In this document: positions 4,029 to 63,090 of the stretch, one piece after another
Layout: every line of letters begins with the position of its first letter
Position numbering within the stretch: position 1 is the first letter of the stretch
NCBI RefSeq assembly: GCF_921293095.1
Contig: NC_060257.1
Location: forward strand, 57,820,968 to 57,884,967
Source: Ischnura elegans
Taxonomy: Eukaryota > Arthropoda > Insecta > Odonata > Coenagrionidae
Length of the DNA stretch: 64,000 bases
Direction of reading: 5' to 3'
Program-made: the position numbers and the translations under genes
The notes under the pieces: model-generated
Databases searched by the model: none
What the model was told of the DNA's origin: nothing
What the model saw: the letters and a program-made list of their open reading frames with translations, nothing else

Positions 4029-4257
4029 ATCAAACTCTGGGTGTTTCCCGAAGGAACTCGCAATGCTTGTGGTCCCATGAAAACTGCTGCTCTGATGAAA
4101 GCTGGAAATGGTGCAGGCAACAGTGGCTCCACGGGAATGATGCTTCCCTTCAAGAAGGGTGCATTCCACGTCGCTCTCTCGGCACAGATTCCAATCCTAC
4201 CTGTCGTGTTTTCTTCGTATTATTTCCTCGATGGACACCAAAAGCACCTTGATCCTG
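4029..4257 (+). CDS. AGPAT: AGPAT exon n-1 (PEGTR motif exon)
   Basis: The acceptor TTTGATGTAG precedes ATC AAA CTC TGG, and the donor is CCTG|GTAAATG. It encodes [12 protein letters not shown], the inserted Gly/Ala-rich segment, then MLPFKKGAF and [14 protein letters not shown]. The length is 229 nt, phase 0 in and phase 1 out. Confidence 0.92.
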
Positions 4258-15612: not shown

Positions 15613-15803
15613 TCACAAAAAGTACGGAGTCGTCGTGCGAGGTGGGATCACACGTTCCGTGTCGGGCACAGCGTGGAAGATGAGAGGTGACTTGTCTTCG
15701 ACATTCTTAAACTGAAGGATTGAAGCCACGTTTCCACAGCGGTAGCAGTAATTTGGGGCAGACCACACTGTGACCAATTTATCCTTGAACATGTATTTGT
15801 AAC
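15613..15803 (-). CDS. PPP6C: PP6 exon 7 (terminal)
   Basis: The acceptor is ATTTTCAG|GTTAC on the minus strand. It encodes [20 protein letters not shown] through [13 protein letters not shown] and ends in TGA at 15615-15613. It covers residues 241-303. Confidence 0.96.
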
Positions 15804-18800: not shown

Positions 18801-21138
18801 GAGGGCATGTTGAACCGTAGCAAAAGAATAAAATTGAATGCTGGGAAGGCTATTTCTAACTATTGTACATGAAATACCAACATAATTTCAAAAGTAACAA
18901 CCCTCTTATAAATACCTTCATGAGGAATTTCCTGATTCCTTTCAATAGTCCGAATCTGGTCAAGTGTCCGAATATCAGGAGAAAGACCACCATGCACACA
19001 TAAAACCTGCTCTTCAATTAACTAAAACAAAAAGGAAAAAGACATGAGATAAGCCCACAGAGTTCAGTTTTTAAGACTTTGATTGCTAATTTATGTTTGA
19101 ATATGTGCACAAGTGCTATTTTATAGGAGAAAATAATCTAATAGTTATCAGTCAGCTGGATATTGTTCCACAAAATGCTGTGTGAAGACCTGGCTACACG
19201 ATATATTGACTAAAACAAGTTAAATGTCTAAATGCACACACAATTTAGGTGTTCAGGATCGGAGCATTTAAAATTACATGAATGGAGTTACAACGGGTTC
19301 TATTTTCTGTTCCTGCATTCACATAATTGGGAAGTTACATGCGGCATTTTGGTTTTCATTCTCGTGTTTGTGCATTTAGACATAAACTTATACATGTAAT
19401 ATATAATATAACGAGACCTTAAGAACGAACTGTGATCACTTATCTCGAAGAAAAATACACAACCCATGAGACTGTTTCCAGTGGCATGAAATAAGAGAAC
19501 CATTTGAAAACGTTCAACAAAATCTTTCAAATTGTCACCATTGTTTTGATTATTACGGTCAATAACATATACCTCGAAGTTATATCATTTAGCGTCCCTA
19601 ATAATATGTTCAAGTGTTTAAGAAAGTGAAAGACTATAATGAAATACCACTTCAAAAATTAGGCAGCACAATCAACTCACAGAAATATGAAGTGGAAAAA
19701 CAGGAAGAGGATAGAAAAATTTTCAAAAATGTACTGATCAGCTCACAATATCTTCCCAACAGGATTTCTGACAGATGCATAAGAATATCTGTAACTTTGG
19801 CCACAACTCTATCATCATGCCTATTATGGCTTATATTGCTATGAACAATAAGTTACATAACGAAGGTACACAATAAAAAACAATGATAAGGAAATGTATT
19901 AGTCAGTACATGTGTCATTTGTGCAAAGACCTGTATGATAGCTATATACACCATGGTGTACTTACCGCGGCTATGGTCAGAAGGTCAAAGACTCTACAGC
20001 AATACCTCCAGGCATTGGCATTGCCGTATTTTTTCTGGCATTCATCTAGAGAGTAATAATAAGAAAATCAATTGGCCAATTAAGGCAGTATTAATTGCAG
20101 GCGTAATTCGTAATTACATTTTCCCTCCCATTACAGCAAATTTATATACAAAAAAGATTATACTTATTATTAGTTATTAATACAAAAAAACTAAGTCGCC
20201 AAAATGTGTAATTCGCACATTACAGTTTTATCGCCATTTACAACATCTGCCTATATCAATGATATTAAAGAAATGTCATATGCACAGTCAGTTAAAAGGA
20301 TTTCGACATTAAGATGTTTCCGTGCTTAAAATATCTAATGAGAACTATTTAAAACTCACCATAAAATCCATATACTTGTGTGATCTGTCGCGACTCGTGA
20401 TTCCCACGCAACAATGTTATTCGATCCGGCCACTTGGCTTTTAACGTTAATAGTCGGGTAAATGTCTCCAAAGAATAGTAGCCTCTGTCAACAAAATCCC
20501 CCATGAATATGTAATTTGTATCTGGAACTTGTCCACCTTTCCTAAAAAGCTCTTCAAGGTCATAAAACTGAAAACAAATAGTTAATAATGAATCGTTTGA
20601 GCACAATGAAGTACTATATATAGACTTCACACTGAAAGGATAATTACCTGACCATGAATATCACCACAAACAGTAACAGGAGTGGAAACAGGATGAATAT
20701 TTGATTCTTCGAGAAGGTAATCGCACACCATATCACATAATTTCTGAAATACATAAACCGCCAAATCAGTTGAAGTTGAGGGTGTAAACTTGGTTGTAAA
20801 CTTAAAATGAAACAGTAAAATCGCGTGAACATAATGTAAAATTTCACTCTTATGCATGAATATAAACACCTTGGGTGTTTAAGAAGCTAACCGAAACGTA
20901 ATCAACCAAAATATTTAAAAAACAATGATACAGAGGCTCATGGGCACAAAATACTGTTCTGAACAAGTGGTTAACGTATTTTAACAGAAAGATACCCCAG
21001 CAAAATCTCCACACCGATTACGGTACAAAATACGGCTAATTGATGTCATTTTCTCATAAATTGACTTGCCTTTAAATCATTTTCAGGGAGGTATTTACAT
21101 TCTTTCGCTATATCAATCCACTTGTCCAATTCCGACAT
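15613..21138 (-). CDS. PPP6C: Serine/threonine protein phosphatase 6 catalytic subunit (PP6/PpV)
   Basis: This is a complete gene of seven coding exons: 21138-21070, 20743-20648, 20567-20360, 20045-19966, 19021-18916, 17612-17451 and 15803-15613. They total 912 nt, encoding 303 aa, close to human PPP6C (305 aa). PP6 is a PP2A-family metallophosphatase that acts with SAPS and ankyrin subunits, for example in mitotic control. The N-terminus has KYLPENDLK. Metal-site motifs are GDIHG (50-54), GDFVDRG (78-84), GNHE (110-113), H161 in CVHGG and H235 in [19 protein letters not shown] and [10 protein letters not shown] are PP6-type. The C-terminal TPYFL is the PP2A/4/6 tail that is carboxyl-methylated on the last Leu. 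All metal ligands are present. Intron 1 begins GC instead of GT. The gene starts 956 bp from dynamin, head to head. Confidence 0.97.
15804..17450 (-). other. PP6 intron 6
   Basis: 1647-bp GT-AG intron. It contains the TTAA-flanked piggyBac-like MITE at 16839-17157. Around 16440-16520 is a C/G-tract-rich remnant with CCTGGGTAGTTGCCAC, weakly like an inverted CAGTGGCGTAGCC-type MITE end. The rest shows nothing recognisable. Confidence 0.7.
16839..17157. mobile_element. piggyBac-like MITE
   Basis: TTAA at both ends and matching inverted termini: TTAACACATTGTGTACGG at the left, and GGTACGCAACGTGTTAA at the right. At 319 bp it has no coding capacity. Other TTAA elements lie at 50527, 53942 and (one end only) 46645. 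Confidence 0.75.
17451..17612 (-). CDS. PPP6C: PP6 exon 6
   Basis: The acceptor TATGTTAAG precedes GTGCATTTTG, and the donor is GAAG|GTATGG. It encodes [16 protein letters not shown] through [17 protein letters not shown] to [10 protein letters not shown], residues 187-240, and includes metal ligand H235. Confidence 0.96.
17613..18915 (-). other. PP6 intron 5
   Basis: 1303-bp GT-AG intron. It contains a probable foldback element at 18181-18610; the rest is unremarkable AT-rich sequence. Confidence 0.7.
18181..18610. mobile_element. Probable foldback MITE
   Basis: Imperfect terminal inverted repeats of about 30 bp: left AACCACACGGTCATTTTTTC, right GAAAAAAATGACCTTGTGAT. No clear target duplication is visible and there is no coding capacity. 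Confidence 0.55.
18916..19021 (-). CDS. PPP6C: PP6 exon 5
   Basis: The acceptor is TTGTTTTAG and the donor is GAAG|GTATTT. It encodes [20 protein letters not shown] and then the [15 protein letters not shown] segment, residues 152-186, with metal ligand H161. Confidence 0.96.
19022..19965 (-). other. PP6 intron 4
   Basis: 944-bp GT-AG intron. No element or exon recognised. Confidence 0.7.
19966..20045 (-). CDS. PPP6C: PP6 exon 4
   Basis: The acceptor is ACTCTCTAG and the donor is GCCGCG|GTAAGT. The 80 nt encode [16 protein letters not shown] and [11 protein letters not shown], residues 125-151, with the first base of Asp125 in exon 3. It is too short to appear as a long open frame but matches the family closely. 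Confidence 0.95.
20046..20359 (-). other. PP6 intron 3
   Basis: 314-bp GT-AG intron, AT-rich, with nothing recognisable inside. Confidence 0.7.
20360..20567 (-). CDS. PPP6C: PP6 exon 3
   Basis: The acceptor is TGTTTTCAG and the donor is TATG|GTGAGT. It carries GDFVDRG (78-84) and GNHE (110-113), the heart of the binuclear metal site, and spans residues 56-124. Confidence 0.97.
20648..20743 (-). CDS. PPP6C: PP6 exon 2
   Basis: The acceptor is TATTTCAG and the donor is GGTCAG|GTAATT. The 32 codons encode [14 protein letters not shown] through [12 protein letters not shown], residues 24-55, with metal ligands D51 and H53. Confidence 0.97.
20744..21069 (-). other. PP6 intron 1, GC-AG type
   Basis: 326-bp intron whose donor is TTAAAG|GCAAGTC and acceptor TATTTCAG. 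The only nearby GT (four bases downstream) would add four bases and break the frame, whereas the GC site joins LPENDLK to KLCD exactly as in other PP6 proteins. Confidence 0.88.
21070..21138 (-). CDS. PPP6C: PP6 exon 1 (start codon)
   Basis: The 23 codons read [20 protein letters not shown] and then DLK, matching the PP6 N-terminus in length and sequence. The ATG at 21138-21136 is the only suitable start. Confidence 0.94.
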
Positions 21139-22094
21139 CTTGGGTAACTAGACCTCACAACTAGCGCCACAGAGGTGAAAAAGAGATGAACTACTTGAAC
21201 CACTCAAAACACGGTTAATTGTGAAAGACGTTGAAGATTATCTCTGAATTATGTTCATTATTACCTCCATATATATAGACAAAAATAAAAATTTGTGAAA
21301 ATAAGAATATTATAATCAGTTTTATCGCAAATATTGAGTATTTAATGATGTGAAGTCACTAATATAAATTTCGTATGTACTTTGTTTTCAGCAGCATAAT
21401 CAACTTTAATAATCACGCCCAAATCTTGTGGTAGTCAGTGTAAAAACGTAATAATTACTCGTTTTCTCATTTATTTTCCTATGGGGGACTTGATGATGAC
21501 CATTTAAAGCTTCAGGCTTCATCTCTTCCGTGTTCTATGATGATAGGTCATGGAAGTGTTTGGGCAATCTTATGAAAACATTTACTACAAAAGTATGTCT
21601 AATTTTTCTGTTAACCCAATAAAACAGTACTTTCGCCTTGCCTAGACACAGAAATCGTTTTCATGAGGTTCTGAGGAAGGGGCTTAGTAGTCTTTCTTCT
21701 GCGCACGCTCTGTTCACGATCTTGCACATATTGATTGAAAGTCTATGGGTCAATCTTTACGCTATGCGAAAACTGATGCGACCCACTTTTTAACTCGTTT
21801 TTCAAATGATGACGATTAAAGTCATCTTTGTGTAATTTAAATTTTCTGTCATCGGTATTTATAATTGGTTTTACAGGGCAAGCGTTAACGAAGAAGAGAA
21901 TGTCCTTCCTAGATCCACTCTCAACGTAGGGCAATCTTCGATCTGAAACGGCCGGGCGACGGGGAGCATTGTGGGAAATAAGCCTTCCATCTTGGTATTC
22001 CGTACCGTGTCGGCTGGAGGCCTAGGACGGCGGAAGGGGTGTCGAGAATTTCAGACGGGATAACAAGGAGGGCGTAAATTAAGATATTGTAAAG
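21139..22094. promoter_or_regulatory. Divergent PP6/dynamin promoter region
   Basis: The 956 bp between the two start codons must contain the 5' UTRs and promoters of both genes, which are transcribed away from each other. The dynamin-proximal 21940-22080 is markedly GC-richer than its surroundings. It includes CCATCTTGG at 21987-21995, which read on the other strand (CCAAGATGG) resembles a YY1-type core. I see no convincing TATA box at a suitable position. No transposon is recognised here. Transcription start sites cannot be placed by eye. Confidence 0.6.
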
Positions 22095-22258
22095 ATGTCG
22101 GGGAATACGGGGATGGAGCAACTCATCCCCATTGTAAATAAACTTCAAGATGCATTTACCCAGTTGGGAGTTAATATGCAATTGGACTTACCACAAATCG
22201 CTGTGGTAGGTGGGCAGAGTGCTGGTAAAAGTTCTGTGCTAGAAAATTTTGTGGGAAG
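22095..22258 (+). CDS. shi: Dynamin exon 1 (start, P-loop)
   Basis: The ATG at 22095 opens [19 protein letters not shown]. The P-loop GGQSAGKS is at 39-46 (K45 corresponds to human K44). Donor GGAAG|GTAAGT, phase 2. A second in-frame ATG (Met7) aligns better with the usual family start, so the true start could be six codons later. Confidence 0.95.
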
Positions 22259-25200
22259 GTAAGTGTTCATTATTACTGTTAAGTTTTGTATTTCATATTT
22301 AACAGGCCTAATAATTCTTTGCTATCAATTTTCATCTGTCGACAAACGTGATTTTAAACTTAACGGTTTTTGACGTACGCAAACCAGTGACAGCTCCCTT
22401 GTATGAGTCATTTATCGTGATTTCACATCTCTCTAGGGATTTTTTGCCAAGAGGATCGGGGATAGTGACACGAAGACCTCTTATTTTGCAGCTAATCAAC
22501 AGTAGCATAGGCAAGTTATCTAGTGCAGTTCATTTGACGATTGTTTTGTCTCTTCGTCTTTGGGTGTTTGTTGATAACACCGTTTTGTACTTCAATCTTT
22601 TTCAGAATATGCCGAATTTCTTCATTGCAAGGGCAAAAAATTCACTGATTTTGATGAAGTACGCAAGGAAATCGAAGGGGAAACGGATCGAGTGACGGGT
22701 ACTAACAAGGGATTATCTCCCATTCCAATAAACCTTCGTGTGTATTCGCCAAACGGTAAGTGGAGCATTTTTTAGACAATTTTCAAGGTTCTCTTTGGAT
22801 GTGATATGGCGTTAGTTTTCTATGGAAGAAGAATTTTCATAATCAGTATTTTTTTCGTCCCATTAATCGTTTATCTGTCCGTAATTATCCTAACCAAGTA
22901 TTTCCAAGAATTCTCGGAATGAGATGGCGGTATGTTTTTATCCCCCTACGTATTCATTTATACAGGGTTCAATAGTTAAATGTCAAGATATTGGCGGAAG
23001 TAACGTTTTAATTGACACACAGTATGGGTGTTCCCTTTAGGTCTTGACCGTTCCTTTAGAGGTAACGTGCGTCAGGAGTATTTCCGCAATAAATTCCCAT
23101 CGTTCAAAATATTTGGTGCATTTGGTAATTGTACCAAATTCGACGCCAATATTTATTAACTTTATTCTGAAACTTAGAGAATGAGTCCACTAATTTTATT
23201 GATGGCAGATGCCAGTAAATGTCAGTCATTATTTTCCTAAATATTCCTTAGTTGACATTGATTAGTATTGATTACTCCAGGTCTTATAAAATGGTCTTAA
23301 TTTAATTTTTTGCTTATCATAGCAATGAATTTGATGCCAGTAAGTGATGCATCACCAATTAAAAATTCCTATTTGCACTACTGCATCAGTTCCACGAATT
23401 TTTTATTCACCGTCTCTTCATATGTAGATTTGTGCCATAAAATTACTATTGATTTGCATAGATGTAATATTTATTAGTGTCATACCAGGAAGGTGCATCG
23501 ACAGTGAAATGTCAGTTTCTGACAGGTGGTAGTCATCAATCAGGGATAAATTAAATTGGTTTTAAGTTATAGAGGTGGCTTCTTACCTATCTCAGGAAGG
23601 TATTTTATGTTACAATGGTAAATGATTATTATTACTTGTAAATATTTTCTAATTCAACCTCCTCCGATGTTATAGCAGAGCACATTTAGTGGACTTTACA
23701 ATAGTGACTGATTTTTTTTTCTAATACACCCTATAATTTGAATCTTTGAATTGGGGTACCTGTAAGAAAAGAGACAACACAAACGCTTTGATTTTGGTGT
23801 ACAATTATTTTAAATATTGTGGTTGTTGTTTAACGTTGGGTGATGTGGTGTGTAACTATTTTCAAAGTGATGACTAAGTCATTGGGGTCAATCGGATGCA
23901 AAATTGCAATTTTTTTAAGAATTCGGTAGATTGGAATAAAATATAAGTTATGATAAAAACTTCTCCTTCATTCAGTCATTCTCGCTTTAATTTTCAAGTA
24001 GGGTCATTCCATGTCTGTTCACCCAGGCATGGCACCCACCGTCTCGGATTTTAATGAAATTTTTGTCACTAGCTACAATCACCTATCTAATGACCCATAT
24101 AAAATATATACTCTCTCACCCTCACAGTGTGCAAGATATGAGGAGTCGAAGTTTGAGATGTTTGTTCAGAAGTGGCGCTAGTGGTGCACGGAGGCAGAAA
24201 AAAAGTAAAACTTGAAATGCTCATAGTGGCAGTCAAAACACCACCATTTTTATTTCACAGTATATTGGAGCACATATTAACCTTCAATAAAAAAAAATTG
24301 GATGAGTTAACTACTCTGCCTTTTGGTGATAATTCTGAAAATATGAAGTAATGTTTTTGACCTAAAAAAATCGGTTAATTAACAACTGTTGACATCATCT
24401 TGGCTTACATAGCAATGCAAGGGGAATAAAAGAAATTACTATGGAAACTGTGTACTTGGATAGACAAGGGGTCAAAATTTCATTCAAATATATTTTGTGG
24501 TTTCTGAGTTATGAATTTTTACCCAGTGCCCTGCACTCTGGAATTTGACTCCCACTAGCGCCACGTGTGAGCAAACATCTCAAACTTCGACTCCTCATAT
24601 CTTGCAAACTATGAGGGTGAGAGAGGAAATATTTGATATGGGTCATTAGATAGGTGATTGTAGCTAGTGACAAAAATTTCATTAAAATCCGAGACGGTGG
24701 GTGTCATTTTGAAAATTTCTGGGTGATTTGACGTGGAATGACCCAGTAAGGAAATGTGATGGTTGCCGCCCACTTGTTGGAAAGTTTTGGTTTATTAACT
24801 AGTTGAGGGTGAACCTCATGCTGAGGGATATAATTGCTCTCAAGAGTGTTAACAGAAATGAAATAGGTGAGGTGGCGCTGAAATGCAGTTACCTTCTCTG
24901 TAGGAATTCATGATATCATCAACTTGACCAGCAAAAAGGCCATCAATTTTTTAGCCTCAAGTAGCTTGAGAAGTAGGAATGAAAAACAGAAAAAATAGCT
25001 CTCTTAATTTTTCAAATTGGTCGTGAATTTGTCGTTATTGATTGAAAATTGAGTTCTTAGAATTTGGAAGTGCAAAATTAACATTGATTATTGAGTATTT
25101 ATTCTGGTACCAAGTATGTTCTGTGAGATTGGTATCATATTTTCAGCTGATTTGGGTGTATCACTTCAGTGTCATTGGCTCAGTCCCACCCACCTCTAAT

Positions 25201-55200: not shown

Positions 55201-58200
55201 GGGGACAAGGAATCCCGCACCGTCACAAAGGCGGGTCGGGTCCTACTACTAACAAAACCAAGCTTACGCAATTAATGTTCTAACAATCTTGGAGGACCAT
55301 TCTATGAGGAAGAAGGATCCAACGATCAAATCGTTAGATGCTTTCAAATACAGCAAACTGCATTTAAAAAAAACTTTTTTGACCGAGACGTATAAAAAAG
55401 AGTGAGAATCGTATTTTCGAGCTAGCCGGCCCTGGTGGGCTTCTAGTGGGCTGGAAGTGTGGGGAGGTTGGTCATATTTGATCCCAAATCAGATGCCCTA
55501 AGTTCAGAAAAAATTCTGGAGGGGGGACTTTTCACCCTCTTATTCATCTATGCTCTTTGAAATTTAGGGCAATAACTGTTTGTATTCCTGAAGGTTCATA
55601 AGGAGAGGACTTACTGTAATGATATTTCTCTATGACATTAATCCATAATTCAAAACTGATGAAAAATAAACATCAAGGTATCACAGGAAATATGTGCTAA
55701 AACATCATGGCGGTCAGCATGTTAAGAAATTCAACAAAAAACATTTTAGGATTAATTATTTTTAAATGCTCTTTGAGTAATATTGATATTTTTTGTGTAT
55801 ATTGAAGTGCCATTTGATTGCTTAAAAAACAGACTGATTGTACTCGATATGGAAGCATCCAGTTTTTGTTCATTTTTGTTTTCTTTCTTCCCCTACCCAT
55901 TCCGTTCTCTCATTCCTCCCCAAAATCCCAAAACATAGGAAACCAGGGTAAGTTCTCCAAGTCTTTTGGCCCCTAAAAAATCCCTCCATCCAGATGGTGA
56001 GTCTCTTCCCCCACTTCTTAATCAGGTGCTCTCCTATACTCTTCTCCCTCGTGGACCTCCTGCTTCTATGGAGTTGAGCAAGCACCAACAAAAAGTGCCG
56101 TTTTTACGCTCGTTCCTTGTCATTCTTTTGTGTGTGTCTCACTCTTTTGTGTTCTGTACATGGCTCGTTTAATTTTGCTTCTTGTTACTTGCCCTTTTGT
56201 GACTGTTTTCCTCTACACGAGGCTCTTCAAGGTCTCGTAAACGCAGTAAATTGTTACCTTCATTCTTTTGGTACTTACGAGGACTTTTATGTCTTGATTT
56301 TATTTTTCGTGCTAATGCATTTTGTTTGCTGGTGAGAAAAAAAAGTGGCGGTACTTATTTGGGACTAGACAAAAAGTGGTGCTTGGGGTACATATTTGAA
56401 CTTAAAAATAAAAAGCCATTCGTATATGTTGAATACTGTGTTAAGTGTTGTATGATGGTGGATCTCAAATAGTACTTAATCATTCAATGTGGCTTGGCAG
56501 ACTTAAAAATTGTTTATTTTTGCCTGCATTACCAGCCTTGAGGTGTCTCCCTTCTTGCCTGTTTACACTTGCTCTTAGCTTATTTTTCTGTATTGAAATA
56601 TTTATGCTAGGTTAAAAGCACTTGATTGAAACTTATTTTGAGGACATGATGGATGGTCAAACTCCTTACTTAGGAAAGCAGGTATATCAGGTCACTTGGA
56701 GCCATTTTTGCTTTATTGTAGGCTCATTTATCTCTCTTTAATCTCAGTATTTTCACCTGCCTACCTCCTCCTAGTAAATTATGAGTCATAATTTCAAATT
56801 GATATTATTTCGGGGTGGCTTTTCATGTTTACATCTGAGAAATAATAGTAACGGTCTGCGTTCATTAATTCGACGACCTTTTATTATTTTTTGAAAGATG
56901 CATGGTGATAACATTAAACATGAACTTCTGTGCAGCCTGGTGAATTGTTAGACGAAGGACATGATAACTTAGTCAGCCTCTGCACCTAAATGAAATATAT
57001 TCTGACTGTAGATAAATTTTTCATCATAGAAATAATTCATTTGCAGCATGCACATTCATTAAATTAGTCTAAATATTAGTGTGATTCCTGCTATCTTCAC
57101 TTTTTACACTCTCAAGTGTCAGCTAAGAGGAGCTAATAGCTGTCTTAGTTTCTATTTTGTCTTCTTTTGCCGCAAATTAAGCAAATATTGGCAGTTTTTT
57201 GTTTTTTTTTTTTTACTTGAAACCGTGCAGAAATCGTGGTTGTAATGTCTGATGGTTTTTTGTCGCTAGTTCTTTACATGAATTCAAAAATTTTGCATAT
57301 TGCTACTATCTATCGCTATAGATCTATGAGGAAAGGGATTTAGACTGCCACGGTCCAGAGATGGATGGTTTATTAAGATAAAATTCTTCTTCACACTAAA
57401 TCTGGGAGCACCCTCAAATTTAGCCATACATTTGCTTCTGAAACATCCTTGTCGAGCATTTTGGTTGAATGAATAATGGTTGCATTGTGTATATGATGCA
57501 TGCTAAGTCTAATTTTTCATGAGTGATAAATTGTTCTAAAGGTAAATTTAATGTCAACAGACGTGCTGTGTGTACAGGTTCCAGACTTATTCTTTTTTGT
57601 GGAAATGTATGCAATTTTCCTGTTAATGTTTTTTGTAGCATTATTCTTAATGACATTTTTACTCATTTTTTTCCTTTTTGATTGCTGGAATATGCATTTT
57701 GGTGTTCAGGAGAGAGAGAAGAAATTAATATTGGTTGTTAAAACTGCCTTTTCACCATGGTTTTTCAAGTTTGATACTTTTTAAGGTAGTTAGTGGACTA
57801 TATTCCAGTCAGCATAAGTCTCATCATCTCTCTAAATTTGCCCATTTTTGTTGAGGTGTATCAAAGCCGGTGGAGTATATTGTTGTTTATCATCATGCTG
57901 TGCCAGCAGCTTCTATGAGGCACATTTCAGACATTTCTTCCGTCAAAGTGTGCTGCATTCATTCATGATGGGTGTGCCATACGGCTGAATCATTTTGAAT
58001 TACAATACCTTAGTTCCTTGGGTGCCCTAAGATTACTGAAAAGTTCTTATGTCTTGGATTTGTTTTGATCTTGCCTGGAATAACTAATTTCTTTCAGTAA
58101 AATTTCTTTTGGCAGTTAATTTTGGATAAAACTTCACCTATACCCCTTGAATTTCATTCAAACACAATCTCAGCTATGCTTCCTACTTATTAATTTCTTT

Positions 58201-61200
58201 AAGGTAGTAGAACAAACTTATCATTCCTCTTCAAAGGCTTTCTCGAGTTTGTTTTCTACATGCTCACTGTTTAGCTAAGTTTTGCAGTTAACAATTGGTG
58301 AATCAAACTATGGATATAATGGGATGGTTTTTTTTATCTTCAAACAAACCTTAAAGTGGTCATCTTAAACCTTAAAGTTATCATCACCTTTACACTTCAC
58401 TTTTATCCTTTTTTATTGTTAAAGAAATGGGTGTGAATTTTTTTCATCCTGTGTTGATCATCATGGTAACACAGAAAATATTGCTTTCTCTTGATAAGTG
58501 TATGAAACTCATCGCCTCTCTTCATTTTGCTCTCATCTCACTTCACTTTATTTTTTTTCAAGTCTTAACACTTAATTCAACCGCAACTTTTGGATTCTTC
58601 CGTCTTTCTATTGCTACTTAGCAGTATTCCTCCATATTTCTAATATTTTTTTTCTTCAGCGGCCCTCAGATGTGGAGTTTTCATGGTAAATTTCTCTCTT
58701 TAATCTTTGACGGTGAAAAGAGGAGGACACTAATCATTTGCTTTATTGCCACTCTTTCCTCCATGCTCTCCCTCTGAAGTCCTCTGAGGTTTGTACAATT
58801 ATTGAATGTCTGTGCTCCAATTACACCATTGGTTTGCAATGTGAATTGCACATAAAACATGAGTATCAGCAAGGATGCAATTGATGACAGTTACTATTGT
58901 TTTAATAGATGTTTACGTGTAATAAAGAAAGGTGAATGTCGATATGCAGGAAGATTTACCTTCTTCTGATTTCAAATTCGGATTCAAACTGAGCTCAGGG
59001 TTGCTCACTCAGACGTGAAACTGCAGTTCATTATAAGTAGTGGGAATGCAATATTGCAATGAAGCGGAAAAGGTTTTATAGGCTCAGTTAATTACACAGC
59101 ATAGTCATTGCGCAGATATTTTTAATGTTTATTTCATTGCTAAAGAGATGGATGGATGCTCAGGAATAACACAAGAATTTTTTTTTTATTTCTACTCCGT
59201 AGAAATGGAATGAGAAAATCATCTGTAACTGTGTTTTTGTGATTAAAAGTACGGATGGGCAACTTGAATACATACTAAAATACTAATGAAGTATTCTTGG
59301 TATTAGATGATCAAGGGAGAAATCCTTCGCTCAAAGAATTCAGTTGTTGGTAGAGAAAGATAAGTTATGACAGAAAAATAGTTGCCTCCCTTTTTCATGA
59401 TGTGATGACTACATTTTAAGGCTTGCTTATTAGCTTTTACTGAAAGAACCACAGATTGAGGGAAAGAATTGCTCTCAAGGCTACAAACGACTTGAAGTTG
59501 ATGCTCTAGACTAAAAAGTAAGCTATGTATTGAAAAATGTCGGTCCCTTTATTTTTTTTTTGCTACATATTACTATCCGGAGAGAGAAAACATTGTGGAA
59601 ACCATTATATTTCTAATCCATTATTCAAGTAGCCTTTGAGATACGAGAAAAAGAGTAGCAAAAACCACAAAAATGGCGTGTGAAGGTTAAAAGGCACAAA
59701 CTTTTTCATTATTTTTAGGTGAGTTTTACTTAGAAAGGGCCACTATTACAAATAAAACCTCAGGGTGTCTTTTTTTCTGTGCAGTTTTCAGAATAATTTC
59801 ATTTTTAGCTACTTAAATCCTTGCATTGGCACCACCACTACTTGCTTTGTGCAAGTACATATATCTTTTGTTTGCCTGTTAGGTACTGTCACTTCTTTTT
59901 CATAATCAATCTAGCTGAAATCTAAGTGGAAAAGTAAATTTTTTTTTGAAGTTGTAGAAGTAATATTATGAGTGGCAAAGTAAGCTCAAGGATGGCTGCA
60001 TTTTATCATTAACTGCTTTGAAATAAATGTGAAAATAATACACAATGAGGAACTTCTTGCATGAAACGCAGATGTAATTCTAATGCATAGTTCGACTGGT
60101 TCAGGCTTGGCTTTTTTGCGGCAGAAAAAAATAGGATTTTTTTGTTAGAATTTGTCTGGCAACGTGAATGACTTCTTCCGGAGTACGCAAGTGGGGAAAA
60201 GGGTGTTCAAATATATGATAGACTCCTGTAGTTAGGTCCTTGTTAGCTTGTGTTATGGATGTGGTCCAACAGTACTTTGGTGATGCTCATGTTTAACGTT
60301 CATCATTTCATGCCATTATACAAAAGCATTAGTGTTGGTGTGTGAGTGATAGCTACCATAGTTCTAGAAAGGTCTATAATAATATGCATGTATGTAGTCT
60401 CTTCTCTAGATTGTGTGATCCTTAAATATTTGACTTCCTTCATGTTGATTGGATCCTGAGTCTTTCTTACGCATTTGTTTTGGTGTGTGATCACAGTGCA
60501 CAGAAATTATCCTAATTTGAAATTTCGTATTGCTAGTGTATAGTTTTACATACCTTTTCTCGTTAATGTGTGGTAAGGATTGTTTTTTAAAAATCTGTTG
60601 TATATTGCTAGGGTTTTGGTTTTTTCCATCATTGGCCTGTTCACTTTGCATAGTTTAATCAAGCTTCTTAATGTGTGGGATTTTAATGTTGTACCATGAT
60701 TACATTTCATTTCATTTTGTTTTACTTTCATTTCAAAACCATTCAGTTTCAAATTTCATCTTTTTTTGGCCATTGTGGCTCCCTTGAGAAATTATCGATA
60801 TTTTGATTGCTGTGAGCGCAGTAATTTTCATATTTTTAATAACTGAAGTAACTTGGCTGAAACTGAATTTTTAAATTAAAAAATTAAAGCATTGAAAAGC
60901 AGTTGTTTCCACGTTTAAAAATAGGGCTGTCATTGTCTCTGAATAGTGGACTTAAACAAGGCCATTGTCATTTTAAATATAAGGTTTGTGGCCGGAGACT
61001 AATTTACCGTGTAATTTTTCCCTTTTTCTTTGGGTTGTTTTGCTGCATTGCTTGTGGGATCCTGACTCAACTGTACTTCCCAACTGCTTGGATTATCATC
61101 ACTATGGCATCTACGATGTTTCACTTTCTTCTGTCGTGGCCCAATAATGGTCGGGATTGGTTTTGTCTTGTACCTTCCACACTGTTGGCTCCCCAATGCA

Positions 61201-63090
61201 TTTTTTTCCTTGAACACTTTATGAAATTTTTGTTAAATTTTATTTTCTATATGAAACATCCTTCATTATTACTGTCCTTTTGTTGATTTTCAATACATTT
61301 TTGATCCATCTTGTGAATACTGAAAATTAACTTCGATTTGCCCGCCGGCAATTTTAATTTCTGAATCTTGGGCCTTCTCTGACTTTCTTGTTTTCTCTTT
61401 TATGGTTTCTCTGTTTACTTTCTGATAAAAAAATATTATTTTGGAATGCAATAAACAAAATTTATTTTCTGAAAATTATCAAAATAATTTTTTGTTTAAT
61501 CTTAAAAACTTTTAATTTGTTCAATGTCATCCTTGGCATATAACCTGTTGGTATTGAAATGAACCAACTATTCTTCCAATGCTGAACGAAATTATTTCCT
61601 ACGTATCCCACGTGTTCCTATATGCTTTGGTCTTCATCCTCCCTCCGCACCTATCTCCCCTTGTGTTGTTTGGTGGGACATTACGTTCAGGGTTCCTCGG
61701 AAGGAAGTTCATCCATGGATCCTCAACTGGAGAGACAGGTGGAGACAATAAGAAATCTAGTTGATTCGTACATGAAGATTGTGACCAAAACGACTAGAGA
61801 TCTAGTACCCAAAACCATAATGCACCTCATCATCAACAACGCTAAGGATTTCATCAATGGAGAACTTCTAGCTCATCTGTATGCATCTGGAGATCAGGCA
61901 AGTTGAAATATCTAACGAGATAATTTTGTATACCTGTATTTCTGGCTTAATCCCTTGTGCTCAAATTACGAGTGTAGCTCATCATGGAATTTTTATGAAT
62001 TTAGCTGTATTTAGGGGAACAATATGAATATTTTGAAATTTTAACTACCGTATATGTCTGAATATAGTCCCCCCTTTTTTTCCAAAAATGCCCGTGGTAA
62101 AAGTAATGGGAGGGACAATATTCAAACGCATTTTTTTTTTTTTAACTTTTCCCGAAACTGAAGCCTCAAAATTAGGGGGGGGGGGGAATATTCAGTGGGG
62201 TACTATATTCGGAGAAATACGGTATGTTAATACATCCATAATGTGCATAAAGAATTCATATTTCATGAAATATGATTCATTGGAAGGAATAAAATGATTT
62301 TATATGATAGCTGATTTCTCGATTTTTAAAACGTAATCACTTTTTATTGCATTTCTACGTAGATTACAAAGTATAAAATATCATTTCATAACCTATCATT
62401 CCATTTAAAAAGAAAATCAGAAATGATAGAGGTTAGGAGCTTGGTATTCAGGAAATAAATTGAAGTGGAAGAGGTTAATGACATGTATGGATATGTTCTC
62501 AAAAAGAGTCGTCTAAAGTCAGAGGTGTATTGTAGATGATGTGTTTACACTTATGACTGCATTGAAGTTGATTAACTCTGGGTAACAGAATTTATTTGGC
62601 ATTTAATTTGTAAATAATTACGTTTGCCTCAACTCAGTTGATATTCCACAGTGATGAATCAATCCAAGTGATAATTGTCTTTTGTAGAGTAAACCAATTC
62701 ATGAATATGTTAGGTAAATGATGTCCAATCTTTCTTTTTTTCATCTGTTAACAACCCTGAAAAACTGTGTCCTACACGCATTTTGTTGAGCTACTTTTTT
62801 CTTTCTTCATGGCTAGATTATTTTAATGTGGCCCTTTATTATTGTAGACTTAATTTCCAGAAACATTTCATATTTATATTAATGTTTGTGTTAATTGTTG
62901 ATTTGGTTTAGGCAAGTATGATGGAGGAATCGCCTGAAGAAGCATTGAAGAGGGAGGAGATGCTTAGAATGTACCACGCTTGCAAAGAAGCTTTGCGCAT
63001 CATTGGAGATGTCTCAATGGCAACTGTCAGCACTCCCGTGCCTCCCCCAGTGAGAGATGACTGGCTACGGTCAGGTTTGGACAATCCCAG
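22095..63090 (+). CDS. shi: Dynamin (shibire), 15 coding exons, 3' end outside window
   Basis: Dynamin is the GTPase that assembles on and cuts the necks of endocytic vesicles. The joined exons give 765 complete codons with no gap against fly and human dynamins. The GTPase domain has GGQSAGKS (39-46), T66 in switch I, DLPG (137-140), TKLD (206-209) and NRSQ (237-240). The stalk spans roughly 300-500 and the PH domain about 519-628, with the membrane loop GIMKGG (531-536). The GED starts near [15 protein letters not shown] (646 onward). The sequence enters the proline-rich region at [12 protein letters not shown]. Exons: 22095-22258, 22437-22510, 22606-22755, 28665-28868, 35708-35900, 36630-36750, 41808-41896, 42082-42281, 43938-44083, 47494-47651, 48475-48643, 49791-49913, 53039-53158, 61691-61897, 62912-63090. 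Introns 2 and 14 are GC-AG. The remaining proline-rich exon(s) should lie right of 64000. Confidence 0.97.
22437..22510 (+). CDS. shi: Dynamin exon 2 (switch I)
   Basis: The acceptor is CTCTCTAG. It encodes [20 protein letters not shown] and then NSSI, with switch I T66. Only 74 nt. The donor is ATAG|GCAAGT, a GC donor; the following exon completes the Glu codon in frame. Confidence 0.93.
22511..22605 (+). other. Dynamin intron 2, GC-AG type
   Basis: 95-bp intron with donor ATAG|GCAAGTTA and acceptor CTTTTTCAG. Using the downstream GT (GCAA|GTTATC) would shift the frame. The GC site gives [16 protein letters not shown], the same length as the fly and human proteins. Confidence 0.9.
22606..22755 (+). 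CDS. shi: Dynamin exon 3
   Basis: Encodes [18 protein letters not shown] through [19 protein letters not shown] to SPN, residues 80-129. Donor AACG|GTAAGT, phase 1. Confidence 0.96.
24001..24744. mobile_element. Foldback element with ~185-bp arms
   Basis: The left arm 24001-24184 and right arm 24552-24744 are long inverted copies sharing the GACGGTGGGTG, CTAGCTACAATCACCTATCT and CAAACTTCGACTCCTCATAT blocks. The ends are GGGTCATTCCATGTC and GACGTGGAATGACCC. Flanking AGTA at 23997-24000 and 24745-24748 looks like a 4-bp target duplication. No coding capacity. Confidence 0.82.
25556..25742. mobile_element. Short MITE with CAGTGGCGTAGCC-type ends
   Basis: The left end CAGTGGCCTAGCCATTAGG and right end AAAATCCTGGCTACACTTCT are inverted matches, and C-rich and AT-rich blocks lie between. 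Related ends occur at 2864 and 27680. Confidence 0.55.
26082..26512 (-). mobile_element. 5'-truncated LINE, reverse transcriptase C-terminus and 3' tail
   Basis: On the minus strand, 26506-26249 encodes [20 protein letters not shown] and then [20 protein letters not shown], the conserved C-terminal region of arthropod non-LTR retrotransposon polymerases, ending [12 protein letters not shown]. It is followed by a 3' UTR ending in a GATGAT-type repeat. The same 3' tail occurs again at 45498-45617. Most of the element is missing, so it is a dead-on-arrival copy. Confidence 0.85.
26567..26712. mobile_element. Hairpin MITE
   Basis: 146 bp with about 46-bp inverted arms. The left contains TATGGCGTCATTATCAAGAC, the right GTCTTGATAATGATGCTATA. 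The ends are CAGTCTTGACGGC and GCCATCAAAACTG. No coding capacity. Confidence 0.75.
27302..27371. repeat. Imperfect hairpin
   Basis: GGCTCTCCATTTCTGCC at the left pairs with GGCTGAAATGGAGAGC at the right, around ATTTCAATGGAAAATTATGT. About 70 bp in all; possibly a very small MITE remnant. Confidence 0.45.
27625..27680 (-). repeat. MITE end, reverse orientation
   Basis: The segment ends ATTCCTGGCTACCCTACCAG-TG, the inverted form of the CAGTGGCGTAGCC-type terminus, preceded by a C tract. No partner end found. Confidence 0.4.
28665..28868 (+). CDS. shi: Dynamin exon 4 (G3 motif)
   Basis: The acceptor is TATTTTTAG. It encodes [20 protein letters not shown] through [19 protein letters not shown] to EVDPA, including DLPG at 137-140. 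Donor GCAG|GTAAGT, phase 1. Confidence 0.97.
29089..29500 (+). mobile_element. tRNA-derived SINE
   Basis: The head starts GGATCGGGTTGGTGTCGTGG and has pol III-like boxes: TGGCTAGAGTGTTGG as box A and GTTCCAATCCC as box B, about 40 bp apart. The body contains GGGACGTTAAGCTGTGATCC. An antisense copy of the same head occurs at 31832-31892. The 3' boundary is approximate. Confidence 0.7.
31832..31892 (-). mobile_element. SINE head fragment, antisense
   Basis: On the minus strand this begins GGATCGGGTTGGTGTGGTAG and continues through TGTTGGCTTCCCACC, matching the head of the SINE at 29089. The GTTGGCTT portion is present twice, so the head is partly duplicated. Confidence 0.65.
32383..32770 (-). 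mobile_element. Penelope-like retroelement fragment (GIY-YIG endonuclease)
   Basis: Minus-strand 32700-32518 encodes [20 protein letters not shown] followed by [11 protein letters not shown], a GIY-YIG nuclease core (GV-Q, SYIG and the catalytic-type Arg). After one in-frame stop the same frame continues [20 protein letters not shown] to [10 protein letters not shown], ending at 32383, which is the usual PLE C-terminus. Upstream, 32700-32770 matches the [10 protein letters not shown]-type linker only after a frame change. This is a degenerate fragment. The + strand frame 32481-32888 is its antisense shadow. Confidence 0.78.
34094..34281. repeat. Inverted pair of tRNA-like SINE fragments
   Basis: The left arm, read on the minus strand, has CAGCAATCAAGAGATCTGGG then TTTCAATCCCAGC (box B-like). 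The right arm, on the + strand, has CAGCAATCAGGGGATCCAGG then TACTAATCCTGGC. The arms continue into matching ATGATTTTTTC-type flanks. The loop includes CACCGAAGATAATGAATTGG-TG. It resembles two head-to-head SINE tails or one foldback element. Confidence 0.55.
34778..34900 (+). repeat. Direct repeat, copy 1 (upstream of dynamin exon 5)
   Basis: It begins GGTCTATGGCTTC and includes AATACTTACAATAGGTTGTT and CATCTTCAGGGCT. It is the same sequence and orientation as 36301-36430 but lacks about 12 bp present there. Confidence 0.7.
35708..35900 (+). CDS. shi: Dynamin exon 5 (G4/G5 motifs)
   Basis: The acceptor is CAATTATAG. It encodes [20 protein letters not shown], then [20 protein letters not shown] and [11 protein letters not shown], with TKLD at 206-209 and NRSQ at 237-240. 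Donor CTAAG|GTATGA. Confidence 0.97.
35901..36629 (+). other. Dynamin intron 5
   Basis: 729-bp GT-AG intron. It carries the second direct-repeat copy at 36301-36430; otherwise nothing recognised. Confidence 0.7.
36301..36430 (+). repeat. Direct repeat, copy 2 (downstream of dynamin exon 5)
   Basis: Second copy of the 34778-34900 sequence, sharing GGTCTATGGCTTC, TATATTATGC and AATACTTACAATAGGTTGTT, with an extra AATAATCTCTTA. Exon 5 lies between the two copies. Confidence 0.7.
36630..36750 (+). CDS. shi: Dynamin exon 6
   Basis: The acceptor is TTGTTATAG. It encodes [20 protein letters not shown] then [20 protein letters not shown]. Donor TTGCAG|GTTAGC, phase 0. Confidence 0.97.
37321..37878 (+). 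repeat. Internal direct duplication in hAT element A
   Basis: About 205 bp starting GCTATCCCCATCCATTCAGC (37321) recurs at 37672 with a period of 351 bp, diverged by many substitutions. Both copies contain GATTTCCTCTTC, TCGTGCAGGGAT or TCGCGCAGGGAT, and AAATATCAAGTTAC. Confidence 0.75.
38117..38754. mobile_element. AATAGGGTGG family element, copy 1
   Basis: 638 bp with inverted ends AATAGGGTGGTTTCC and GGAAACTACCCTATT. It is nested inside hAT element A. It has a 657-bp sister at 52161-52817 and a truncated one at 43200-43426. Contains TATTTTTCGCGATTAAAT and GGTAACCTCAGA blocks. No transposase frame; target duplication not resolved. Confidence 0.75.
39057..41573 (+). mobile_element. hAT element B with decayed transposase
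   Basis: The perfect 8-bp target duplication GTTATAGT lies at 39049-39056 and 41574-41581. The inverted ends are TAGTGATGGGTCG and CGACCCATCACTA, with subterminal GGAATCG/CGATTCC repeats in place of the ATTCGAATA repeats of element A. The C-terminal part of a hAT transposase lies at 40859-41205. Near 39260 a further terminus-like stretch, TTGGGATGTGCGAGTACTCG, suggests a nested related end. The segment 39550-40500 is not recognised. Confidence 0.87.
40859..41205 (+). pseudogene. hAT transposase C-terminal fragment, frameshifted
   Basis: An open frame ending at 41123 encodes [20 protein letters not shown] then [20 protein letters not shown] and SER, the Dimer_Tnp_hAT signature. From about 41090 the expected continuation is in a different frame: FSSAGKI, then NRL and MVCLLSKNL. 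The earlier RNase H-like part is not recognisable. This is a broken copy within hAT element B. Confidence 0.8.
41587..41674. mobile_element. 88-bp hairpin MITE
   Basis: The arms AATTTATTTTAAGGTAAGAC and CATACCTCAAAATAAATT are inverted, continuing inward through CTAGTTTCGATGCAG and CTGCATCAAAACTAG. It lies five bases beyond the right target duplication of hAT element B. Confidence 0.7.
41808..41896 (+). CDS. shi: Dynamin exon 7
   Basis: The acceptor is TTTTTTCTAG. It encodes [20 protein letters not shown] then PAIKTKAML. Donor CTGCA|GTAAGT, phase 2. Confidence 0.96.
42082..42281 (+). CDS. shi: Dynamin exon 8
   Basis: The acceptor is TTCATTTCAG. It encodes [20 protein letters not shown] through [19 protein letters not shown] and [17 protein letters not shown], stalk residues 332-398. 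Donor CACG|GTGAGA, phase 1. Confidence 0.97.
42744..42890. repeat. Dispersed repeat, copy 1
   Basis: Shares ACGAACAAGATGCATTCC-type sequence and then GGCATTGAAAAGTGTTTTTA with 54303-54480. The opening resembles the TACGAAC...GTTCGTAA ends of a widespread pogo/Tigger-type MITE group. Decayed, with no coding capacity. Confidence 0.5.
43200..43426. mobile_element. AATAGGGTGG family element, truncated copy 3
   Basis: It matches the left 230 bp of 38117-38754 (AATAGGGTGGTTTCCTATTA onward, through TATTTTTCGCGATTAAAT to ATGAGGTGACC) and then breaks off. No right end. Confidence 0.72.
43430..43858 (+). mobile_element. hAT fragment with LDPRFK motif and right terminus
   Basis: The + strand at about 43510-43625 encodes [20 protein letters not shown], with the hAT transposase hallmark LDPRFK. 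The right end, 43770-43858, has the same ATTCGAA-type subterminal repeats as hAT element A and stops at CTATTCAACCCATCTTTA. No matching left end or target duplication was found. Confidence 0.7.
43938..44083 (+). CDS. shi: Dynamin exon 9
   Basis: The acceptor is TTTTACAG. It encodes [20 protein letters not shown] then [20 protein letters not shown] and VVRTCTDK. Donor AAG|GTGAGT, phase 0. Confidence 0.97.
44562..45466 (+). mobile_element. mariner element with internal deletion
   Basis: The inverted ends are GGGGACCCAAAAGTAACGGG and TTATTTTTGGGTCCCC, with TA at each side. Decayed frames on the + strand give the N-terminal HTH region ([20 protein letters not shown], then [13 protein letters not shown]). 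This runs directly into the C-terminal region ([19 protein letters not shown], then MTPIVQPPF and the PCDF-like segment). The part carrying the first catalytic Asp is missing. A run of G at about 44590 expands the left end. Confidence 0.85.
45498..45617 (-). mobile_element. LINE 3' end, copy 2
   Basis: On the minus strand this 120-bp piece matches the 3' UTR of the LINE at 26082 (TGCGTCAAACCAATCATAGG region) and ends in the same GATGAT repeat. It is a 5'-truncated insertion of the same family, about 30 bp past the mariner relic. Confidence 0.78.
46006..46588. mobile_element. pogo/Tigger-like MITE (CAGTGAAACCTCG type)
   Basis: It is flanked by TA on both sides, with ends CAGTGAAACCTCGATATAAC and TTTAACGAGGTTCCACTG. 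Subterminal motifs CTCGCTATAGCGA and CTCGCTATGGCGA are arranged symmetrically. 583 bp with no transposase. Confidence 0.85.
46645..46665. repeat. Solo piggyBac-like terminus
   Basis: TTAACACTTTGCGTGCCATG resembles the TTAACACRTTGYGTACC end of the element at 16839. I could not find an inverted partner within the next 800 bp. Confidence 0.35.
47494..47651 (+). CDS. shi: Dynamin exon 10
   Basis: The acceptor is TTCCCTGTAG. It encodes [20 protein letters not shown] through [20 protein letters not shown] to EDFIGFA. Donor GCTAA|GTAAGT, phase 2. Confidence 0.97.
47652..48474 (+). other. Dynamin intron 10
   Basis: 823-bp GT-AG intron. More than half is the decayed pogo-like element at 47761-48218. 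Confidence 0.7.
47761..48218. mobile_element. pogo/Tigger-like element, old decayed copy
   Basis: The left end CAGTAAACTCCTGATTATCA and right end GATAATCAAAAGTTTACTG are inverted and related to the ends of 8124-8827. TA precedes the left end; the right TA is lost. Internal sequence is diverged. Confidence 0.65.
48475..48643 (+). CDS. shi: Dynamin exon 11 (PH domain start)
   Basis: The acceptor is TTCTTCAAG. It encodes [20 protein letters not shown] through [20 protein letters not shown] to [10 protein letters not shown]534 aligns with human K535 in the lipid-binding loop. Donor GATGAG|GTAAGT. Confidence 0.96.
48644..49790 (+). other. Dynamin intron 11
   Basis: 1147-bp GT-AG intron, containing the hAT MITE at 48780-49223; the remainder is unremarkable. 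Confidence 0.7.
48780..49223. mobile_element. hAT MITE with perfect 8-bp target duplication
   Basis: TTGTAGGT flanks both sides (48772-48779 and 49224-49231). The ends are CAGTGTTTCCCAAACTTTT and CCTTTTGGGAACCACTG. 444 bp; the interior has a G/C-rich patch and no transposase. Confidence 0.88.
49791..49913 (+). CDS. shi: Dynamin exon 12 (PH domain)
   Basis: The acceptor is AAATTTCAG. It encodes [20 protein letters not shown] then [20 protein letters not shown] and K. Exactly 41 codons, phase 0 both sides. Confidence 0.97.
50527..51383. mobile_element. piggyBac-like element
   Basis: TTAA at both ends, with TTAACCTTTTCCCTACTAAA at the left and CGTCTCGAAAGGGTTAA at the right. The interior includes a GC-rich part at 50680-50790 and a 110-bp block at 51239-51350 that recurs at 51974-52076. 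No intact transposase. Confidence 0.7.
51239..52076 (+). repeat. Direct repeat pair shared by two elements
   Basis: 51239-51350 and 51974-52076 share GAAAGCGTGTGATTATCC or GAAAGCATGTGATTATCC, CTTCTTAACGAATG, CTCCAAAAATG and GAGAAAGAAGAGTC. One copy is inside the piggyBac-like element and the other inside the neighbouring CAGGGTTCCC element. Confidence 0.7.
51544..52917 (+). mobile_element. CAGGGTTCCCACTC element (hAT-like), copy A
   Basis: It starts CAGGGTTCCCACTCAACC and has several CCGTGAATTT-type direct repeats at both ends. The right end, TAGAGTGG, is degenerate. A second copy starts at 63717. It carries the nested element at 52161-52817. No transposase recognised; the right boundary is approximate. 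Confidence 0.65.
52161..52817. mobile_element. AATAGGGTGG family element, copy 2
   Basis: 657 bp with ends AATAGGGTGGTTTCC and GGAAACTACCCTATT. Closely similar to 38117-38754 over its full length. Nested in the CAGGGTTCCC element. Confidence 0.8.
53039..53158 (+). CDS. shi: Dynamin exon 13 (PH domain end)
   Basis: The acceptor is TCTCCTGTAG. It encodes [20 protein letters not shown] then [20 protein letters not shown]. Exactly 40 codons. Donor GATGAG|GTTTGT. Confidence 0.96.
53361..53871 (+). repeat. Tandem duplication, 255-bp period
   Basis: Two adjacent copies of about 255 bp (CTCCCTCATCATC begins at 53371 and again at 53626). They differ at only about four or five positions that I can see, for example CATCGACC/CATCAACC and ATAGAG/ATCGAG. 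Confidence 0.93.
54303..54480. repeat. Dispersed repeat, copy 2
   Basis: Contains ACGAGATGCGTTCTGAGACC, TTGTTCGTAA and GGCATTGAAAAGTGTTGTTA, matching 42744-42890. Confidence 0.5.
54559..54838. mobile_element. pogo/Tigger-like element, truncated copy 2
   Basis: Starts CAGCAGACTCCCAATTATCC after TA and follows the 8124 element, including an AAAAAAGATCGC segment and GGATTATTCGTGC near the end. The right terminus is missing. Confidence 0.75.
55040..55230. other. GC/purine-rich block with strong hairpin
   Basis: This block is far richer in G and A than anything around it. GGAGGCGCCGCCGCGAGACG followed by CCTCC can form a stable stem (GGAGGCG with CGCCTCC). It lies inside the TTAA element. No function is evident. 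Confidence 0.5.
61691..61897 (+). CDS. shi: Dynamin exon 14 (GED)
   Basis: The acceptor is TACGTTCAG. It encodes [20 protein letters not shown] through [20 protein letters not shown] and [16 protein letters not shown]. 69 codons, phase 0. The donor is GATCAG|GCAAGT, a GC donor; reading on gives a TGA two codons later. Confidence 0.94.
61898..62911 (+). other. Dynamin intron 14, GC-AG type
   Basis: 1014-bp intron with donor CAG|GCAAGTTG and acceptor GGTTTAG. The next exon also starts GCAAGT, so AGGCAAGT occurs at both junctions. A GT donor at +4 gives a frameshift with either possible acceptor. Contains the MITE at 62048-62222. Confidence 0.87.
62048..62222. mobile_element. Short MITE, CCGTATWT type
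   Basis: TA-flanked, 175 bp, with ends CCGTATATGTCTGAATATAG and CTATATTCGGAGAAATACGG. G and C tracts lie just inside the ends. Terminal sequence and TA target suggest a Tc1/mariner-superfamily MITE. Confidence 0.8.
62912..63090 (+). CDS. shi: Dynamin exon 15 (GED end, start of proline-rich region)
   Basis: Encodes [20 protein letters not shown] then [20 protein letters not shown] and [19 protein letters not shown]. Donor CCCAG|GTGCGT, phase 2. Reading on into the intron runs open to a stop at 63239-63241. Confidence 0.95.

What the first reader, a model, noticed from the sequence alone, without database searches (positions are those of the whole stretch)
20744..62911. Three GC-AG introns among 21 visible introns
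PP6 intron 1 (donor at 21069), dynamin intron 2 (22511) and dynamin intron 14 (61898) all start GCAAGT after AG. In each case the GC site alone keeps the frame and the conserved protein length, and the nearest GT breaks it. GC donors are generally around 1% of introns in animals, so 3 of 21 in two adjacent genes is high. The lineage may tolerate GC donors more than usual, or chance may explain it.
Basis: partly seen in the sequence, partly recalled or inferred. Interest (0 to 1): 0.72.

Follow-up and report, generated by a model that had tools for sequence, protein, structure and literature searches.

The report
Three ordinary GC-AG introns, probably chance
Three introns in two neighbouring genes of a damselfly start with GC instead of the usual GT; they look real, but this is a known rare intron type, and a spot check elsewhere in the same genome found one in 65, so the local cluster is most simply chance.

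Summary
PP6 intron 1, dynamin intron 2 and dynamin intron 14 all begin GCAAGT and end AG; no GT site tested keeps both the frame and the conserved protein length. I found one further intron (an acyltransferase gene), so the window shows 3 GC of 22 donors. The window is chromosome 12 of Ischnura elegans, judged by assembly size and contig lengths. All three fit the known U2-type GC-AG class: near-perfect consensus around the C and ordinary AG acceptors. A junction caller blind to the base at +2 recovered all three. Used elsewhere in the genome (PP1/PP2A/PP4, Rab, DEAD-box and chaperonin genes), together with six hand-read donors in neighbouring genes, it gave 1 GC of 65 donors (Rab7), 1.5% (95% interval 0.04 to 8.3%). 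That fits the animal mean of 0.98% and rejects a genome rate near the window's 13.6%. The U1 snRNA 5' end is canonical in 27 of 30 loci read; the other 3 lack it. The GC-tolerant-lineage idea is unsupported in strong form; a modest excess (2 to 8%) is not excluded. No RNA-seq could be checked. Ordinary; low interest.

The parts
20744..21069 (-). PP6 catalytic subunit intron 1, GC-AG, 326 nt, phase 0; donor AAG|GCAAGT at 21069, acceptor TTTCAG|AAA
   Evidence: gapless over the junction against PDB PP2A-C
22511..22605 (+). dynamin intron 2, GC-AG, 95 nt, phase 1; donor TAG|GCAAGT, acceptor TTTCAG|AAT
   Evidence: gapless over the junction against PDB dynamin-1
61898..62911 (+). dynamin intron 14, GC-AG, 1014 nt, phase 0; donor CAG|GCAAGT, acceptor GTTTAG|GCA; 8-mer AGGCAAGT repeated at 61896-61903 and 62910-62917
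   Evidence: gapless over the junction against PDB dynamin-1
15613..21138 (-). PP6 catalytic subunit gene, 7 coding exons, 303 aa, 6 introns (1 GC, 5 GT)
   Evidence: 80% identical over 303 aa without gaps to a recalled PP6 probe; in the genome search the window's exons are the only near-identical matches
22113..63090 (+). dynamin (shibire-like) gene, 15 coding exons in the window, 14 complete introns (2 GC, 12 GT) and the GT donor of intron 15 at 63091
   Evidence: intron 15 acceptor and the next exon found downstream of the window
   Evidence: upstream exons outside the window. In one search the caller preferred another GT (AAT|GTCACC) by 1.9 units over the hand-set CTG|GTAAAT; either way the donor is GT

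Best explanation
The three are ordinary U2-type GC-AG introns, spliced by the major spliceosome. U1 snRNA with a canonical 5' end pairs with nearly every donor position except the C at +2, and the near-perfect rest of the donor (xAG|G_AAGT) makes up for that mismatch. Each most likely arose by a T-to-C change at +2 in a donor strong enough to bear it. Their clustering in two neighbouring genes is most simply chance in a genome whose GC-donor rate is near the animal mean of about 1% (up to a few percent not excluded). Shown: the sequences, the frame, the protein continuity, the donor match, the U1 5' ends and the sample outside the window. Inferred: use in vivo, the mutational origin, and chance as the cause of the clustering.
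For: Junctions fixed by frame and gapless conserved protein. A caller blind to the +2 base picks all three GC sites; the best GT alternative is 20.2 (dynamin intron 2), 54.5 (dynamin intron 14) and 88.2 (PP6 intron 1) score units worse. The GC donors match the consensus at 7 (dynamin intron 2), 8 and 8 of the 8 positions other than +2; the 19 GT donors range from 5 to 8 (one-sided rank test p = 0.03), the compensation described for the class in PMC2490688 (part 1 of 2 of its text read). All four AGGCAAGT found on the two strands of the window lie at these junctions. Outside the window 1 of 65 donors is GC against an animal mean of 0.983% (PMC7072748 Table 1) and 0.7% in D. melanogaster protein-coding genes (PMC7242645 passages). 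Of 30 U1 loci read, 27 keep ACTTACCTG at the 5' end (26 ATACTTACCTG, 1 TTACTTACCTG) and 3 lack the 5' end.
Against: P(3 or more of 22) at 0.983% is 0.0013. The window differs from the outside sample at Fisher p = 0.048. Pooled, 4 of 87 is above 0.983% (P = 0.011), so a modestly raised rate fits a little better than exactly 1%; but pooling includes the window that prompted the question. No RNA-seq was available, so use of the sites is not shown directly.
Confidence: 0.78

Rival explanations
1. The lineage (Odonata, or Ischnura) carries a modestly raised GC-donor rate of 2 to 8%, through relaxed selection on +2 or a spliceosomal change other than the U1 5' end.
For: 3 of 22 in the window plus one more GC donor (Rab7, CAG|GCAAGA) in 65 outside; pooled 4 of 87 = 4.6%, interval 1.3 to 11.4%.
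Against: Without the window that prompted the question the rate is 1 of 65, as expected at 1% (P of one or more 0.47). The U1 5' end is canonical in 27 of 30 loci read, the others lacking it.
Confidence: 0.2
2. The GC donors are regulated weak sites used for alternative splicing. At dynamin intron 2 the GC site would compete with the in-frame GT sites and change a loop by -3 or +4 residues.
For: GC donors are reported as enriched in alternatively spliced genes, with let-2 a tested case (PMC2490688). In-frame GT alternatives exist at intron 2.
Against: Those GT sites match U1 very poorly (3 of 9 positions; -1.9 and -1.3 kcal/mol) and would break a length conserved with PDB dynamin-1. At PP6 intron 1 and dynamin intron 14 the alternatives listed lose 8 or 9 residues or score far worse.
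Confidence: 0.07
3. Assembly errors or rare alleles at +2, the usual sequence being GT.
For: Not tested with reads.
Against: It would need three independent T-to-C errors, all at +2 of strong donors, plus a fourth in Rab7. The paper reports long-read assembly polished with linked reads (PMC9975421 passages).
Confidence: 0.03
4. Intron 14 came from an insertion that duplicated AGGCAAGT (an introner-like origin), which would make its GC donor a by-product of a target-site duplication.
For: An exact 8-nt repeat spans both ends; the next largest end repeat among the 21 complete introns is 5 nt.
Against: None of the 9 inverted-repeat pairs listed joins the two intron ends; the MITE-like one lies inside at 62046-62224. 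GCAAGT is both a strong donor and a plausible Ala-Ser codon pair.
Confidence: 0.03

Closest known systems
U2-type GC-AG introns (major non-canonical class of animals)
   Same: GC at +1 +2, AG at the 3' end, near-consensus -3 to +6 otherwise, canonical U1 5' ends in the genome, ordinary lengths (95, 326 and 1014 nt)
   Different: Nothing that was tested; only the local density (3 of 22) is above the class's usual share
Lineages with very common non-GT donors: Eurytemora affinis and Oikopleura dioica (GA-AG), Aureococcus and Micromonas pusilla (GC-AG 39.6% and 22.2%)
   Same: Non-GT donors exceed 10% in the local count only
   Different: The sample outside the window is 1 of 65, and no changed U1 5' end was seen. 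What is said of the named species was read in passages of PMC7072748 and PMC3033335

Membership tests
U2-type GC-AG intron | Intron starts GC and ends AG at the junction that keeps frame and conserved protein length | tested here: met
   for 3 of 3; for dynamin intron 14 the junction can slide within an 8-nt repeat
U2-type GC-AG intron | Rest of the donor close to consensus, compensating the +2 mismatch | tested here: met
   7, 8 and 8 of 8 positions
U2-type GC-AG intron | Not a U12-type donor (ATATCC-like) | tested here: met
   donors are GCAAGT; the U12 consensus is as printed in PMC3033335; branch points were not examined
U2-type GC-AG intron | Junction used in RNA | not testable with these tools
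   no RNA reads held
Lineage with raised GC-donor rate | Genome rate like the window's 13.6% | tested here: not met
   1 of 65 outside the window; P(1 or fewer at 13.6%) = 0.0008
Lineage with raised GC-donor rate | Genome rate modestly above 1% (2 to 8%) | tested here: inconclusive
   1 of 65, 95% interval 0.04 to 8.3%
Lineage with raised GC-donor rate | U1 variant whose 5' end pairs C at +2 | tested here: not met
   30 of 35 U1 matches read: 26 ATACTTACCTG, 1 TTACTTACCTG, 3 without the 5' end; the 5 lowest-scoring matches were not read, and the tool calls its counts lower bounds
Introner-like (transposon-born) intron, for dynamin intron 14 | Element termini (inverted repeats) at the intron ends beside the duplication | tested here: not met
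   (minimum length 11): 9 inverted-repeat pairs, none joining the two intron ends

The most novel reading that the evidence does not exclude
Damselflies, and perhaps Odonata, keep GC donors at several times the usual animal rate (about 2 to 8% of introns) with an unchanged U1 5' end. That would make an early-branching winged-insect lineage a case of relaxed +2 selection.
Probability: 0.18. Interest if true: 0.35.

Novelty: new member of a known kind. Interest (0 to 1): 0.13.

Why it matters
Mostly practical: gene finders that allow only GT donors would lose exons or shift frame in PP6, dynamin and Rab7 of this species. If the whole-genome rate did prove several percent, it would be a natural case for asking what lets a lineage tolerate C at +2; the sample here does not point strongly that way.

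Tried and rejected
High GC-donor rate as a lineage trait at the window's 13.6%: rejected by 1 of 65 elsewhere. U1 5'-end change: none in the 27 of 30 loci read that have a 5' end. GT donors at the three sites: of the in-frame stop-free pairs printed (shifts up to 36 nt; 4, 3 and 0 of 16, 5 and 1 within 60 nt for dynamin introns 2, 14 and PP6 intron 1), none keeps the protein length, and in the scored search within 45 nt the best GT choice was far worse each time. Introner origin of intron 14: no terminal repeats. More genes in the window: Pfam over the three + frames of 1-6122 and all six frames of 6001-15602 found only the acyltransferase; the - strand of 1-6000, the dynamin introns and 15.6-22 kb were not scanned this way. 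Rfam at gathering scores: nothing in the window. Lineage by a SINE pattern in viral contigs: no match. Counting genome donors by a bare pattern is not informative, the background being too high (334 + 339 matches against 244 + 230 for the reversed pattern).

The outside sample is not random: from the matches (32; 65; 56; 60) I fetched places where exons of one gene lay near each other, 11, 20, 10 and 13 stretches (108, 110 and 111). In one search exons of about nine chaperonin-like genes were listed; four were fetched, and one of these (L090) gave no junction. Rows dropped before the count: 1 of 20 rows (an apparent GA donor lying on an N spacer between two stretches, an artefact); 1 of 13 rows (eIF4A1 position 106, a GT call with weak context, a small exon missed by the chaining). 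Pairs skipped because the protein gap was over the limit or no junction was found: 4 (1 of them PP6 intron 6 in the window, set by hand), 3, 5, 2. Of the 65 outside donors, 6 come from neighbouring genes (3 and 2 in two acyltransferase genes, 1 at dynamin intron 16) and were read by hand. The caller, run on these stretches, repeated 2 of the 6, the second with a near-tie (-1.2, a GA site); the other 4 were skipped or not covered. In one search the caller put the acyltransferase intron at 4258 at another GT, 1.9 units ahead of the hand-set one. Several Rab and DEAD-box pairs rest on 30 to 50% identity to the probe, so single junctions there are less certain.

Paper searches: GC-AG, splice sites and dragonfly together gave 0 papers. 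GC-AG, dynamin and intron gave 3; of these, passages of PMC5036811 concern another gene, the other two were seen in the listing only. Passages of PMC10639083 and PMC4028053 were looked at and gave nothing used here.

Full report
Identity of the window. The window is G000:C12:57820968-57884967 of a 1,722,721,009-base, 110-contig assembly. This agrees with Ischnura elegans ioIscEleg1.1: 1,723 Mb, 110 scaffolds, chromosomes 1, 12 and X of 170.58, 94.74 and 123.64 Mb (PMC9975421, passages), against contigs C1 170,575,982, C12 94,743,817 and C19 123,641,648.

The observation. I built both gene models from the DNA. PP6 has 7 coding exons (21138 to 15613, minus strand, 303 aa). Dynamin has 15 coding exons in the window (22113 to 63090). 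Donors are 6 for PP6, 14 complete plus one open for dynamin, and one more for an acyltransferase gene at 4258: 22 in all. Three are GC: PP6 intron 1, dynamin introns 2 and 14, exactly at 21069, 22511 and 61898. The joined dynamin aligns without gaps across both GC junctions to PDB dynamin-1 ([13 protein letters not shown] / LQLVNATTEYAEF; ASGDQASMMEES / SCGDQNTLMEES). The PP6 junction aligns without gaps to PDB PP2A-C.

How firm the junctions are. Within 60 nt I counted 16, 5 and 1 GT-AG pairs that keep the frame without stops, for dynamin introns 2 and 14 and PP6 intron 1; those with shifts up to 36 nt were printed (4, 3 and 0) and none keeps the protein length. The two nearest rivals at dynamin intron 2 match U1 at 3 of 9 positions. 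A caller that scores protein fit and donor context but ignores the +2 base was run on dynamin and PP6: 19 junctions came out, all as in the hand models, the three GC sites included, with the best GT alternative 20.2, 54.5 and 88.2 units worse for dynamin introns 2 and 14 and PP6 intron 1. PP6 intron 6 was skipped by its chaining step. It later repeated dynamin intron 15, and at the acyltransferase intron preferred a different GT by 1.9 units. At dynamin intron 14 the 8-mer AGGCAAGT stands at both ends, so nine placements give the same mRNA; only GC-AG is a known class.

What they are. The donors TAG|GCAAGT, CAG|GCAAGT and AAG|GCAAGT match the consensus at 7, 8 and 8 of 8 positions other than +2, while the 19 GT donors range from 5 to 8. 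This is the compensation described for GC donors (PMC2490688, part 1 of 2 of the text). Intron lengths of 95, 326 and 1014 nt and AG acceptors are ordinary. U1 genes: 35 matches, 33 over the cut-off; I read the best 30, of which 26 start ATACTTACCTG, one TTACTTACCTG, and three lack the 5' end. So there is no sign of a U1 suited to C at +2.

Is three of 22 special? At the animal mean of 0.983% (PMC7072748 Table 1) the chance is 0.0013, or one such window in about 790, before allowing for a finding chosen after reading. With the +2-blind caller I sampled donors from genes of this genome found by homology, choosing places where exons of one gene lay close together: PP1/PP2A/PP4 genes 13 GT; Rab genes 18 GT and 1 GC, after dropping one artefact of 20 rows; DEAD-box genes 12 GT, after dropping one ambiguous GT of 13 rows; chaperonin genes 15 GT. 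Six GT donors in genes overlapping or next to the window were read by hand (2 of the 6 repeated by the caller). Together 1 GC of 65, 1.5%, interval 0.04 to 8.3%. The one GC donor is in Rab7...VDDRTVTMQ|GCAAGA...TAG|IWDTAGQERF; there the best GT alternative was 18.7 units worse.

Reading. A genome rate like the window's 13.6% is rejected (P = 0.0008); 1% fits (P of 1 or fewer 0.87), and 3% (0.42) or 5% (0.16) cannot be excluded. Window against outside, Fisher p = 0.048; pooled 4 of 87, P = 0.011 at 0.983%, though the pool contains the window that raised the question. I take chance clustering in a genome with a rate of one to a few percent as most likely.

Limits. No RNA reads, no related species' genomes and no annotation were available. 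Gene names rest on recalled probes plus the PDB and Pfam matches named. Several Rab and DEAD-box junctions rest on moderate identity to the probe.

Verdict: well-supported GC-AG introns of a well-known class; the density is a mild local oddity, not shown to be a property of the lineage.

Noticed in passing
L076 and L077 (G000:C10:54543450-54544150 and 54549550-54550150, - strand): Rab7 gene has a GC donor, CAG|GCAAGA, between VTMQ and IWDTAGQERF; found in the outside sample.
   Followed up: yes
61896-61903 and 62910-62917: Exact 8-nt repeat AGGCAAGT at both ends of dynamin intron 14, longer than the end repeats of the other 20 complete introns (at most 5).
   Followed up: partly
62046-62224: MITE-like element in dynamin intron 14: 28-nt inverted arms, 86% complementary, beginning and ending TACCGTAT / ATACGGTA.
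   Followed up: no
4297-5573: Nested inverted repeats inside the acyltransferase intron: 7 pairs with arms of 43 to 187 nt, 78 to 91% complementary, probably transposon copies.
   Followed up: no
L039, L044-L046 (upstream flank): A second acyltransferase-like gene on the opposite strand lies upstream of the one cut by the window start: a neighbouring pair.
   Followed up: partly
G000:C2:86876992-86877897: Uninterrupted PP2A-like phosphatase reading frame of 312 aa, 56% identical to this PP6, with no intron in the match.
   Followed up: no
L036, L037, L038: U1 copies lacking the 5' end (136-nt matches), pseudogene-like.
   Followed up: no
26252-26542 (- strand): Frame resembling the C-terminal part of a LINE reverse transcriptase by eye; Pfam gave no match over cut-off.
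   Followed up: no
about 29090-29430 and 31780-31900: SINE-like unit (GGTTGGTGT.GT.GCTAG.GTGTTGGCTTCC), a copy and an opposite-strand fragment in dynamin intron 4, seen by eye; no exact match in viral contigs.
   Followed up: partly
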